DNA of 64,000 nucleotides, from contig CP129490.1 in assembly GCA_030584085.1 (NCBI GenBank), positions 310,001 to 374,000 on the forward strand, given 5' to 3'. This document shows positions 50,474 to 54,027 of this stretch, piece after piece. Positions within the stretch are counted from its first letter, which is position 1; each line of letters starts with the position of its first letter. The translations under genes and the position numbers were made by a program. This DNA is from Melioribacteraceae bacterium (GTDB lineage Bacteria > Bacteroidota > Ignavibacteria > Ignavibacteriales > Melioribacteraceae). Below the pieces are notes generated by a model. It saw only the letters and a program-made list of their open reading frames with translations, was not told where the DNA came from and ran no database searches.

Positions 50474-51541
50474 ATGGAAAATTTGAACAAGAGAATTGCC
50501 GGTCGATTAAAAGTATTTGACGAATCCTTTGCAAAAAAAATACTTGAAAAACAATTTGAAGCACAACCTACTTTAAAAGAGAAGTACGGCGAAAAGCAAA
50601 TTCATCATTACATTGAAGACACTAAATTTCATCTAAGCTATCTAGCTGAAGCAATTATAAATAACGAATCCGCTTTATTTAACGAATACCTGGCATGGGC
50701 TAAAACATTTTTCGAAAATCTTCCCGTAACTGATGACGAAATAATTATGAACCTTGAATTACTGAGGGATGAAATTGCATCGAATTTACCGGAAGAAATG
50801 TACAACGTTACAAATAAATATATTAATGAAGGGATTGAATACTACAAAATAAAATCACCTGTGCTTCCTTCTTTCATAAAAGATGAAAATCCGCAAAAGG
50901 AAATCGCGGAAAAGTATTTGAATTTTTTGATTGAAGGAGATAAAGTATCGGCTCATCAACTAATAATGAATGCTGTACAAAATGGAATCCCAATTAAGAA
51001 TTTGTATCTAAACGTATTTCAAGTCTCACAGCAAGAGACGGGTCGTTTATGGCAGATGAGTAAAATATCTGTCGCACATGAACACTTTATAACTGCCGCA
51101 ACTCAGTTAATAATGGCCCAGCTATATCCGTATATGTTTACATCAGTTAATAAAGATAAACGTGTTATAGTCTCATGCATTCAAGGTGAATTGCACGAAA
51201 TTGGAGCAAGGATGGTTGCCGACATTTTTGAAATGGAAGGTTGGAATTCATATTACTTTGGTGCGAATACTCCAATTAGAAGTGTTATAGATAGTATCAA
51301 TAAATATAATCCTCAAGTACTGGCTATATCTACTACAATGACGTTTAACTTATCATCTGTTTCCGATATGATTGAAAAAGTAAGATCCGAAATCGCTTCA
51401 AAAGATTTGAAAATTTTGGTCGGAGGATATCCATTTATAATTTCGGAAAAGTTATGGCAGAATATTGGTGCCGATGGTTTTGCTCCAAACGCAATTTCTG
51501 CTGTCAAACTTGCGGAAGAACTTATTACCCCAGAGGTTTAA
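50474..51541 (+). CDS. cobalamin-binding sensor protein with CarH-like motifs
   Basis: A 355-residue cytosolic protein. Residues ~1-125 are a helical domain (EKYGEKQIHHYIEDTKFHLS, NLELLRDEI) resembling that of RsbRD-type sensors. Residues 145-225 are a B12-cap domain with W193-x9-E203-H204, the spacing used by AdoCbl photoreceptors of the CarH/LitR group. Residues ~228-355 are a Rossmann-like B12-binding domain with E239-x-H241-x-x-G244 (lower axial His). In CarH the residue after the Trp is the upper His; here it is Gln194. No DNA-binding domain is present, so output must pass to the kinase encoded 4 bp downstream. Binding of cobalamin is well supported; light sensing is only possible. Confidence 0.85.
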   Translation: MENLNKRIAGRLKVFDESFAKKILEKQFEAQPTLKEKYGEKQIHHYIEDTKFHLSYLAEAIINNESALFNEYLAWAKTFFENLPVTDDEIIMNLELLRDEIASNLPEEMYNVTNKYINEGIEYYKIKSPVLPSFIKDENPQKEIAEKYLNFLIEGDKVSAHQLIMNAVQNGIPIKNLYLNVFQVSQQETGRLWQMSKISVAHEHFITAATQLIMAQLYPYMFTSVNKDKRVIVSCIQGELHEIGARMVADIFEMEGWNSYYFGANTPIRSVIDSINKYNPQVLAISTTMTFNLSSVSDMIEKVRSEIASKDLKILVGGYPFIISEKLWQNIGADGFAPNAISAVKLAEELITPEV

Positions 51542-51545
51542 TTAA

Positions 51546-52739
51546 ATGATTAATAATAATGTTGACGGACTTGTTATCTCATGCAGTAAAGAAGGCAGAA
51601 TTACAACAGTTCATTTTTGCAGCTTGGGAATTAACGAAGAAAAAATAGATGGTAAATTATTTATTGAGCTTTTTAGAACAGAGTATATTCATACTGCTCT
51701 CGATTTTATAAATAAAATAAAAGAAGACTCCGCAGCTTTTGGATGGGAATTGTTCATGAATCCATCTATTAATAATAAACCATTTTTCTTTAGCGGATCT
51801 TTGATAGACAATGAAATTTTCATCATCGGCTCTCTCACAAAAGTGGATTTTGATAAATTCAATAAAGGTATGATGCTAATTAACAATGAACAGATAAATA
51901 AAATACGAGAATTAGAAAAAGAGAGAATAGAGAAAACTTTAAGTGAGCAAAAAACCGACGATAAAATTTTTGATGAACTAACAAGACTGAATAACGAACT
52001 TGTAACGATGCAAAGAGAATTAACCAAGAAAAACTTGGAGCTGGAAGAACTAAATAAACTTAAAAACCAATTTATAGGAATGGCCGCACATGATTTACGT
52101 AATCCTCTTGGTACTATTTTGAATTATGCTGAATTCTTAGAAGATGAATGTGATCCCTTTTCTAATGAACAAATTGAATTTCTTCATCATATAAAATCTC
52201 AAAGTTCGTTTATGCTTAGTCTTGTAAATGACTTGCTGGATGTTACTTCAATAGAATCCGGCAGTATAAAACTATCTCTTGAAGCGGTTGATGTTGCGGT
52301 ACTAATATTCCAAATTATTCATTTAAATAAAGTGCTTGCCGATAAGAAAGAGATTGAAATTAATATCGATTCTCAAATACAATCATCTAGCTTATTGTTA
52401 GATAAAGGAAAAATTGAACAGGTTATAACCAATCTTTTAACAAATGCAATTAAGTACTCGGAAAAGAAAACTACAATTACTGTTTCGATTTATGCGGAGA
52501 AGGATCAAATAATTATTTCGGTCAAAGATCAAGGACAGGGTATTCCAAAAGATGAATTAAACCTACTGTTTAAGCCTTTCCAAAAAACCAGCGTAAAAAG
52601 TACTGACGGTGAAAAAAGTACCGGACTAGGGTTGTTCATTGTTAGAAAAATTGTTGAAGCACATAAAGGAAAAATTTGGGCTGAAAGTAAACCGGGTATT
52701 GGTTCTACTTTTTATGTAAGTCTGCCTTCAACTAGATAA
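51546..52739 (+). CDS. PAS-like sensor histidine kinase partner of the B12 sensor
   Basis: A 397-residue soluble kinase. Residues ~1-110 form a PAS-like fold (DGLVISCSKEGRITTVHF, FGWELFMN, FIIGSLTKV). A coiled coil (~110-175), HisKA (IGMAAHDLRNPLGTILNYAEFL) and HATPase (NLLTNAIKYSEK, DQGQGIP, STGLGLFIVRKI) follow. No membrane helix. It begins four bases after the B12 gene's stop, so the two are one operon and likely one signalling unit. No response regulator lies beside it; the target is unknown. Confidence 0.9.
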   Translation: MINNNVDGLVISCSKEGRITTVHFCSLGINEEKIDGKLFIELFRTEYIHTALDFINKIKEDSAAFGWELFMNPSINNKPFFFSGSLIDNEIFIIGSLTKVDFDKFNKGMMLINNEQINKIRELEKERIEKTLSEQKTDDKIFDELTRLNNELVTMQRELTKKNLELEELNKLKNQFIGMAAHDLRNPLGTILNYAEFLEDECDPFSNEQIEFLHHIKSQSSFMLSLVNDLLDVTSIESGSIKLSLEAVDVAVLIFQIIHLNKVLADKKEIEINIDSQIQSSSLLLDKGKIEQVITNLLTNAIKYSEKKTTITVSIYAEKDQIIISVKDQGQGIPKDELNLLFKPFQKTSVKSTDGEKSTGLGLFIVRKIVEAHKGKIWAESKPGIGSTFYVSLPSTR

Positions 52740-52864: not shown

Positions 52865-52910
52865 CGGGGCCGACGAGACTCGAACTCGCGACCTCCTGCG
52901 TGACAGGCAG
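52865..52910 (-). tRNA. 3' part of tRNA-Asp(GTC), 5' part missing: integration site
   Basis: On the minus strand the sequence reads CTGC-CTGTCAC-GCAGG (anticodon arm, anticodon GTC), a five-base variable loop, T-arm GCGAG-TTCGAGT-CTCGT, acceptor strand CGGCCCC and discriminator G. From base 27 backwards (52911 on) the D-arm and 5' acceptor strand are replaced by unrelated DNA. An intact tRNA-Asp is therefore expected at the far end of the element, beyond this window. This is the standard footprint of a tyrosine integrase that recombines in a tRNA anticodon/3' half. Confidence 0.85.
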
Positions 52911-52926
52911 TGGGATTTCTGCAATC

Positions 52927-52974
52927 CTGCTGTCAATTCCCAGCTTTTCGGCAGTCGGTACATAGTCGGTACAT
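52927..52974. repeat. integrase-site repeats next to the tRNA fragment
   Basis: CTGCTGTCA (52927-52935) is the inverted partner, with one bulged G, of TGACAGGCAG inside the tRNA anticodon arm (52901-52910), forming a candidate recombination core. Immediately after comes an exact tandem 11-bp direct repeat AGTCGGTACAT (52953-52963 and 52964-52974), a possible arm site. All lie between the tRNA and the integrase start. Confidence 0.5.
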
Positions 52975-52992: not shown

Positions 52993-54027
52993 ATGTTTCT
53001 TTCAAGAGATACAAAATCACCGTATTACCAAGTAATCTATTTTGTAAATGGTAAAAGAACCAAAATTTCTACACGAACGGCTAACAAAAAGGAAGCAGAA
53101 AAATTTCTAAAATCCTTTGTACCTCAGCAGAAAGAAAAGAAGGTTGAACCGGAAGAACCAAAAGAGAAAAAAGTTTCTATAAAACTAAGCTGCTTTATCG
53201 AAGAATATAAAACTTATGTACGCAACACATATTCTGAAAAATATCTTAAGAAAGCTGTGAGACCATCATTTATGGCTTTACAAAAAAATATTCCTGATAT
53301 GCCGCTTAATCAGATTTCAACGAGAATCATTGATCAATTTATATCCTCAGCCTCAGCAATTTCCAAACATTCAGCGTCACTTTACCACCGCACCCTAAAA
53401 GCAGCATTTAATAAAGCTGTAGTTTGGAATTATCTTGAAGCTAACCCTTTCGATAAAATTAAAGCTCCCAAAGTTCCGAAATCCTTTCCTGTGTTTATTT
53501 CAGAAAGTGAACTAATCCTTATTCTAAACAATACTCAAATGCAGCTAATGAAAGATATATTTACAACAGCCTTTTATACTGGTATGCGTCTCGGCGAGTT
53601 AGTTAATATGAAGTGGAATTGGATTGACTTCAAAGAAAATATTATCACAGTTAAAAACTCAAGTGAATTCAATTCCAAGAACAAGCGTGAAAGAATTATT
53701 CCTATTCATCAGAAAGTACAAACTATTCTGCAAACTCGTTATCAATTAGGAAGGTTTGAAAATACTCTTGTCTTTTGTCGTTACGAAGGAATAAAATTAA
53801 ATGAGGATTTTGTAAGCAAACAATTTAAAAAAGCAGTAAGAGAAGCAAAACTAAATGATAAAATTCATTTCCATACACTCCGTCATTCTTTCGCTTCGGC
53901 TCTTGTTCAACGTGGTATTTCTCTTTATGCTGTTAAAGAATTATTAGGTCATGGAAATATTAAAACAACTCAAATTTATTCTCATTTGCAGAAGGATAAC
54001 TTAAGAGAAGCAGTCAATCTGTTATAG
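52993..54027 (+). CDS. int: tyrosine-family integrase/recombinase
   Basis: A 344-residue phage-type integrase. An N-terminal arm-binding segment (YYQVIYFVNGKRTKISTRTA) and a SAM-like core-binding region (~70-160) precede the catalytic domain. The catalytic residues are TAFYTGMRLGELVNMKW (Arg), HTLRHSFASALVQRG (His-x-x-Arg), LLGHGNIKTTQ (His) and IYSH (nucleophilic Tyr). GAAGGAG precedes the ATG. It faces away from the tRNA fragment into the element, as usual for elements inserted in tRNA genes. All catalytic positions are intact. Confidence 0.92.
   Translation: MFLSRDTKSPYYQVIYFVNGKRTKISTRTANKKEAEKFLKSFVPQQKEKKVEPEEPKEKKVSIKLSCFIEEYKTYVRNTYSEKYLKKAVRPSFMALQKNIPDMPLNQISTRIIDQFISSASAISKHSASLYHRTLKAAFNKAVVWNYLEANPFDKIKAPKVPKSFPVFISESELILILNNTQMQLMKDIFTTAFYTGMRLGELVNMKWNWIDFKENIITVKNSSEFNSKNKRERIIPIHQKVQTILQTRYQLGRFENTLVFCRYEGIKLNEDFVSKQFKKAVREAKLNDKIHFHTLRHSFASALVQRGISLYAVKELLGHGNIKTTQIYSHLQKDNLREAVNLL

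What the first reader, a model, noticed from the sequence alone, without database searches (positions are those of the whole stretch)
50474..52739. B12-binding sensor coupled to a histidine kinase, with a near-complete CarH photoreceptor motif
Seen: W193-x9-E203-H204 in the cap domain, E-x-H-x-x-G (E239-H241-G244) in the B12 domain, no DNA-binding domain, and a soluble PAS-like histidine kinase starting 4 bp later. Established: W-x9-EH marks AdoCbl light sensors such as CarH, whose upper axial His follows the Trp directly. Here that position is Gln194. Inference: this is a cobalamin-dependent two-component input, either a light sensor with altered chemistry or a corrinoid/redox sensor. The kinase's target is unknown.
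Basis: partly seen in the sequence, partly recalled or inferred. Interest (0 to 1): 0.75.

Follow-up and report, generated by a model that had tools for sequence, protein, structure and literature searches.

The report
Vitamin B12 light sensor with kinase
Two neighbouring genes appear to encode a light sensor built from a vitamin B12-binding domain plus a phycobiliprotein-like (bile-pigment-type) domain, and the dedicated kinase it controls: a split, kinase-coupled version of the recently discovered photocobilin photoreceptors, in bacteria that carry no known gene for making the bile pigment.

Summary
In detail: 50474-51541 (355 aa) carries W193-x9-E203-H204 and E239-x-H241-x-x-G244, and a soluble histidine kinase (51546-52739) starts 4 bp later. 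It is a phycobiliprotein-like "photoglobin", and a profile of it retrieves the photocobilin SasPcob (E=4e-8) and phycobiliproteins first in the PDB. All chromophore-contact residues that I mapped onto SasPcob (W61, E71, H72, H108, D270, W296) are present as W193, E203, H204, H241, D49 and W75. Gln194 is not "altered chemistry": the light-active SasPcob has Gln there too. So this is a photocobilin-type AdoCbl (and probably bilin) photoreceptor with reversed domain order. The kinase pairing is real. All 13 carriers in the order have the pair, the kinase's N-terminal domain occurs in the same 15 of 395 phylum genomes as the sensor (plus one weak hit), and in two Myxococcota-group genomes sensor and kinase are one ORF. 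New here: linkage to response regulators and, in four relatives, KaiB (KaiC in two); and a puzzle: none of the 97 order genomes searched has a canonical heme oxygenase, so the bilin source is unknown. Nothing was tested biochemically.

The parts
50474..51541 (+). Sensor gene: photoglobin + B12-binding (photocobilin-type) protein, 355 aa
50474..50860 (+). N-terminal photoglobin / phycobiliprotein-like domain (residues 1-129)
   Evidence: profile A2 vs PDB: SasPcob 4e-8, allophycocyanins from 8e-7; Pfam Phycobilisome in 9 of 15 members, best 7e-7; AF2 model vs smURFP Z 17.1, 2.1 A over 129 residues
50618..50620 (+). Asp49, equivalent of SasPcob Asp270 (biliverdin contact)
   Evidence: phmmer alignment offset; D in 31/33, E in 2
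50696..50698 (+). Trp75, equivalent of SasPcob Trp296 (biliverdin D ring / corrin contact)
   Evidence: spacing 26 residues from Asp49 as in SasPcob; invariant 33/33
50906..51124 (+). Helical cap of the cobalamin-binding domain (residues 145-217)
   Evidence: PF02607 E=1e-11
51050..51055 (+). Trp193-Gln194 (adenosyl cap Trp; Gln at the CarH His132 position)
   Evidence: Gln also in SasPcob (PMC11796333)
51080..51085 (+). Glu203-His204 (EH motif, dimer interface/adenosyl contact in CarH and SasPcob)
51161..51505 (+). Rossmann-fold B12-binding domain (residues 230-344)
   Evidence: PF02310 E=2e-19; photocobilin 8J2Y Z 26.4 over 210 residues
51194..51196 (+). His241, lower axial cobalt ligand (SasPcob His108)
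51546..52739 (+). Cytoplasmic sensor histidine kinase, 397 aa, dedicated partner
51546..51905 (+). Kinase N-terminal domain (~120 aa, no Pfam family, possibly PAS-like)
52062..52262 (+). HisKA dimerisation/phosphoacceptor domain, phosphoacceptor His182 at 52089-52091
52404..52733 (+). HATPase_c catalytic domain with N and G boxes

Best explanation
The two genes encode a photocobilin-type two-component light sensor. The 355-aa protein binds adenosylcobalamin base-off with His241 as lower ligand, Trp193 capping the adenosyl group and Glu203/His204 at the head-to-tail dimer interface. Its N-terminal photoglobin domain packs next to the corrin and can hold a linear tetrapyrrole through Asp49 and Trp75, as biliverdin is held in SasPcob. 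Light cleaves the Co-C bond (green directly; red through the bilin when one is bound), the adenosyl leaves, the EH helix moves and the dimer rearranges. That change is passed by protein-protein contact to the co-translated kinase through its dedicated N-terminal domain and coiled-coil linker, changing autophosphorylation. Shown here: domains, residues, predicted fold, strict pairing and fusions. Inferred: cofactor binding, photochemistry, direction of kinase control, and the target response regulator.
For: Best PDB matches of the whole protein are photocobilins 8J2W/8J2X (E=8e-24), with 8J2Y also among the top five (E=3e-19). The AF2 model (pLDDT 89) matches them over residues 139-353 at Z 25.6-26.4, above all other B12 proteins listed, and matches smURFP/allophycocyanin over residues 1-129 at Z 17. 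Complete SignatureFinder light motif GxxW/EH/GxxH/GxxxP (G190-W193, E203-H204, G238-H241, G263-P267) (motif from PMC11796333). D49 and W75 align exactly with the biliverdin contacts D270/W296 of SasPcob; position 49 is D in 31 and E in 2 of 33 relatives, W75 is 33/33 (roles from PMC10979010). Kinase adjacent in 13/13 carriers in the order, 8/8 carriers in a second family (group f32 of the genome search), Cyclobacterium, an archaeal MAG and two Azospirillum species; spacing -8 to +18 bp in the 14 pairs measured; one ORF in L010 and L093. Kinase N-domain and sensor N-domain hit the same 15 of 395 phylum genomes, plus one weak extra hit. The genome uses AdoCbl: methylmalonyl-CoA mutase present.
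Against: No canonical heme oxygenase in this genome or in any of 97 genomes searched in the order, no HugZ-type DUF2470 protein, HutW only below its cut-off, and no phytochrome PHY domain, so a biliverdin supply is not evident. The position of the phycobiliprotein Cys is Tyr46 here, so any bilin would probably be non-covalent. No response regulator or obvious light-regulated gene adjoins the pair in this window. No biochemical data.
Confidence: 0.75

Rival explanations
1. AdoCbl-only green-light sensor: the photoglobin domain is a structural or allosteric element that no longer carries a bilin in these organisms, as nearly so in AbDPcob (about 20% biliverdin occupancy).
For: No canonical heme oxygenase in any of the 97 genomes searched in the order or in eight further Bacteroidota carriers; no PHY phytochrome in the 17 carriers tested; weak biliverdin binding of AbDPcob (PMC10979010).
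Against: AbDPcob lost the contact Asp (His there), whereas Asp49 and Trp75 are kept across phyla; a pocket without a ligand should drift. Bilins may be imported or made by an unknown route.
Confidence: 0.35
2. Not a light sensor but a corrinoid, redox or O2 sensor: it reports AdoCbl level or corrinoid oxidation state to the kinase in the dark (AerR/PpaA-like or methyl-corrinoid-like).
Against: Complete light-responsive signature, photocobilin as clearly best match (Z 26 versus 20; E=8e-24), phycobiliprotein-like second domain. Corrinoid methyltransferase models score far below cut-off.
Confidence: 0.15
3. The sensor is a stand-alone protein and the kinase is unrelated; adjacency is incidental.
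For: A few relatives (Skermanella, Phycisphaerae L012, some Myxococcota) lack a detected adjacent kinase, although only short flanks were read in some.
Against: Same 15 of 395 genomes for both N-domains (Fisher p 3e-26, not corrected for phylogeny), translational spacing, gene fusions in L010 and L093.
Confidence: 0.03

Closest known systems
Photocobilins SasPcob (8J2W/8J2X) and AbDPcob (8J2Y), PMC10979010
   Same: Cobalamin-binding domain plus phycobiliprotein-like globin domain; same AdoCbl residues; same biliverdin Asp and Trp as SasPcob; Gln after the Trp as in SasPcob.
   Different: Globin domain is N-terminal here (SasPcob: C-terminal; both orders were noted by the authors from predicted models); output is a separate histidine kinase, not a diguanylate cyclase or unknown partner.
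Photoglobin family (Schneider et al. 2022, paper not held; cited in PMC10979010 and PMC10151467)
   Same: The globin-B12 fusion group to which the N-domain belongs; PMC10151467 reports a CXQD motif in photoglobins, and 16 of 33 relatives here have Cys-x-x-D.
   Different: This protein and the other ignavibacterial members have Tyr or Thr instead of Cys. I could not check whether that paper lists the kinase pair.
CarH / TtCarH
   Same: W-x9-EH cap, E/DxH lower ligand, AdoCbl pocket.
   Different: No MerR DNA-binding domain; upper His132 is Gln194, so no bis-His light state is possible at that position.
CtMerR (8JBS)
   Same: Light-responsive cobalamin domain without the CarH upper His.
   Different: DNA-binding output; Arg at the Gln194 position.
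Bacteriophytochrome histidine kinases
   Same: Works like: bilin-assisted light input to a HisKA kinase.
   Different: Unrelated sensor domains; no PHY domain in this genome.

Membership tests
Photocobilin | Cobalamin-binding domain with the light signature GxxW, EH, GxxH, GxxxP | tested here: met
   G190/W193, E203/H204, G238/H241, G263/P267
Photocobilin | Phycobiliprotein-like globin domain in the same chain | tested here: met
Photocobilin | Biliverdin-contact Asp and Trp (SasPcob D270, W296) | tested here: met
   D49 and W75, aligned and same spacing; AbDPcob itself lacks the Asp
Photocobilin | Binds AdoCbl and biliverdin; green and red light convert AdoCbl | not testable with these tools
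   needs spectroscopy; the organism shows no canonical heme oxygenase
CarH transcriptional repressor | N-terminal MerR-type DNA-binding domain | tested here: not met
   no HTH in Pfam; the N-terminus is a photoglobin
CarH transcriptional repressor | Upper axial His after the cap Trp (TtCarH H132) | tested here: not met
   Gln194; CarH model 50 bits versus cut-off 400
Corrinoid methyltransferase protein (MtbC/MtaC/MtgC) | Scores above the curated family cut-off | tested here: not met
   best 78.6 bits versus cut-off 370
Orthodox two-component sensor kinase | HisKA phosphoacceptor His plus HATPase N/G boxes | tested here: met
   HisKA and HATPase_c; H182, N296, N300, D328, G330, G332, G360, G362 invariant in A4
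Orthodox two-component sensor kinase | Cognate response regulator | tested here: inconclusive
   none adjacent in the window; receiver-domain genes lie directly downstream in several relatives
PAS-domain kinase | PAS domain in the N-terminus | tested here: inconclusive
   no Pfam/PDB hit; profile-profile 58% over 66 columns

The most novel reading that the evidence does not exclude
A photocobilin two-component system that, in part of its range (G029, G067, G074, G089), is wired to receiver domains and KaiB, with KaiC in two of them, would be a B12/bilin light input to a Kai-type state or timing switch in non-photosynthetic bacteria. In heme-oxygenase-free hosts its photoglobin would use an imported or otherwise made linear tetrapyrrole.
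Probability: 0.2. Interest if true: 0.8.

Novelty: new variant of a known kind. Interest (0 to 1): 0.56.

Why it matters
The papers I could read describe photocobilin output mainly as a fused cyclase or an unknown partner. Here is a widespread set (Bacteroidota including Ignavibacteria, Myxococcota, Alphaproteobacteria, an archaeal MAG) in which the partner is known from genome evidence: a dedicated histidine kinase with its own N-terminal domain. That makes B12-light signalling to phosphorelays directly testable with two small soluble proteins. It also poses a sharp question: why keep the bilin pocket in genomes without a recognisable bilin-making enzyme.

Tried and rejected
AF2 of the Polyangia sensor-kinase fusion without an alignment gave pLDDT 38 and was discarded. 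The HutW/ChuW anaerobic heme-degradation route: all hits below the family cut-off, consistent with HemN/HemW-type relatives. HugZ-type DUF2470: none in 22 carriers. Phytochrome PHY as a sign of bilin use: none in 17 carriers. Pfam and PDB assignment of the kinase N-domain: no match. Correlation of sensor and kinase distances (Pearson 0.79 over 14 pairs) was not used as evidence because shared phylogeny alone can give it. VIA-align did not list photocobilins for residues 1-129; the reversed domain order probably lets only one domain align at a time. The original photoglobin paper is not held, so priority for the kinase pairing could not be checked.

Full report
Observation. The B12 domain is unambiguous (PF02310 E=2e-19, PF02607 E=1e-11), and the second ORF is a HisKA/HATPase_c kinase.

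Residues 1-129 are a second sensor domain. The single sequence gives only a hint (Pfam Phycobilisome E=0.011 in the full protein, 0.0027 alone), but a profile of 15 relatives (A2) retrieves SasPcob photocobilin first (E=4e-8), then a long run of phycobiliproteins from 8e-7. Nine of 15 members match Pfam Phycobilisome on their own, best 7e-7. The AF2 model (pLDDT 89.4, pTM 0.85) aligns residues 1-129 to smURFP and residues 1-127 to allophycocyanin B at Z 17 and about 2 A, and residues 139-353 to photocobilins 8J2Y/8J2W/8J2X at Z 25.6-26.4, above MetH, AerR and CarH at 20-22.

Residue mapping. From the phmmer alignment, chain index plus 6 gives the paper's numbering. W193, E203/H204 and H241 fall on SasPcob W61, E71/H72 and H108. 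D49 and W75 fall exactly on D270 and W296, which PMC10979010 names as contacts of biliverdin. In 33 full-length relatives from several bacterial phyla and one archaeal MAG: W75, W193, E203, H204, H241, G244 33/33; D49 31 (Glu in 2); Q194 29. The published light signature GxxW/EH/GxxH/GxxxP (PMC11796333) is complete here and in 24 of 33; most misses are the Gly of GxxH.

Gln194. SasPcob has Gln at the same place (stated in PMC11796333) and is photoactive; its light state is water/hydroxide-ligated instead of bis-His (PMC10979010). So Gln194 predicts a SasPcob-like end state and is no argument against light sensing.

The pair. A kinase follows the sensor in all 13 carriers among 97 genomes of the order, in eight of eight carriers of another Bacteroidota family, in Cyclobacterium (L009), an archaeal MAG (L011) and two Azospirillum species. 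Spacing ran from -8 to +18 bp in the 14 pairs measured. In L010 (Polyangia) and L093 (Myxococcota) sensor and kinase are one ORF. The kinase N-domain has no Pfam or PDB match. Searching 395 phylum genomes, the sensor N-domain hits 15 genomes and the kinase N-domain the same 15, plus one weak hit at 7e-5 (Fisher p 3e-26 without phylogenetic correction). It is a dedicated partner. Exceptions without a kinase in the DNA read: Skermanella, Phycisphaerae L012 and some Myxococcota. In Ilyobacter a related sensor overlaps a GGDEF gene instead, so the output is exchangeable.

Downstream wiring. In this window no response regulator adjoins the pair. In relatives, receiver-domain genes follow directly (L008, L065, L068, L071, L072 confirmed by Pfam; others by their N-terminal sequence). 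KaiB occurs in 8 of 97 order genomes; four of those are carriers, and in all four KaiB lies 1.2-2.4 kb from the sensor (Fisher for co-occurrence p 0.01). KaiC (PF06745) is in the same cluster in L008 and L071. Two relatives have the pair beside what look, by their N-terminal sequences, like heme biosynthesis genes (hemE, hemN, hemH, hemG) and one near a hemA-like gene (not confirmed by a family search). This genome itself has no KaiB.

Cofactors. AdoCbl use is supported by methylmalonyl-CoA mutase in the genome. Biliverdin supply is not: no PF01126 heme oxygenase in any of 97 order genomes or in eight further Bacteroidota carriers and L009; of the carriers tested only the Polyangia fusion carrier has one. 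HugZ-type DUF2470 and PHY domains are absent. HutW-like hits are below cut-off. Sixteen of 33 relatives have Cys at position 46 (a C-x-x-D motif that could bind a bilin covalently); this protein has Tyr. The retained Asp and Trp argue that some tetrapyrrole is bound, but this is inference.

Mechanism, shown versus inferred. Shown: domains, predicted fold, residues, pairing, fusions. Inferred from photocobilin work: AdoCbl photolysis, adenosyl release, EH-helix shift and dimer change, as SasPcob light activation acts on a partner enzyme through protein contact (PMC10979010). Inferred here only: transmission to the kinase N-domain and the coiled-coil linker L-N-N-E-L...Q-R-x-L-x-K-x-N, whose counterpart directly follows the cobalamin domain in the L010 fusion.

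Novelty. The sensor is a new member of the photocobilin family with the less-studied domain order; the strictly paired split kinase and the Kai linkage make it a variant. The photoglobin paper of 2022 was not available; as I recall its abstract, it reports photoglobin association with signal-transduction domains generally, so priority for the kinase link is uncertain.

Noticed in passing
L008 8277-10891; L071 1978-4998; L067 5846-6118; G067:C1:291126-291371: KaiB (and KaiC in L008 and L071) encoded within a few kb of the photocobilin-kinase pair together with receiver-domain proteins; all four KaiB genes found in carriers lie there.
   Followed up: partly
L067 9615-14500, L073 1-5612, L068 11589-12866: In three relatives the pair sits beside genes that look by sequence start like heme biosynthesis genes (hemE, hemN, hemH, hemG; hemA-like), a possible light-tetrapyrrole link.
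   Followed up: no
L074 5363-6037 (G000:C1:77419-77982): Second CarH-like cobalamin domain in the same genome: 224-aa stand-alone protein with W-E and EH motifs, no photoglobin and no adjacent kinase, beside a PAP2-like membrane protein; similar stand-alone CBD genes are common in the order.
   Followed up: partly
L079 4533-6576: Ilyobacter polytropus plasmid: a related cobalamin sensor overlaps a GGDEF gene whose linker resembles the kinase linker, suggesting exchange of the output enzyme.
   Followed up: no
L065 5831-6334, L064 6232-6699, L068 5545-6009: Small, apparently secreted ORFs next to the pair; the L065 one has a borderline VirK match (5e-5, just under the cut-off), the L068 one no match.
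   Followed up: partly
window 52873-52928 and 52993-54027: tRNA remnant (Rfam 24.7 bits, below the 29 cut-off) beside an integrase gene, then cation-efflux genes: likely left edge of a genomic island just right of the pair.
   Followed up: partly
L070 1-5764: In G031 the pair is followed by what look like CheW, CheR and chemoreceptor genes, a possible link to phototaxis.
   Followed up: no
L073 6839-7902: In G067 the sensor is split into two ORFs by a stop/frameshift while the kinase stays intact: pseudogene or sequencing error.
   Followed up: no
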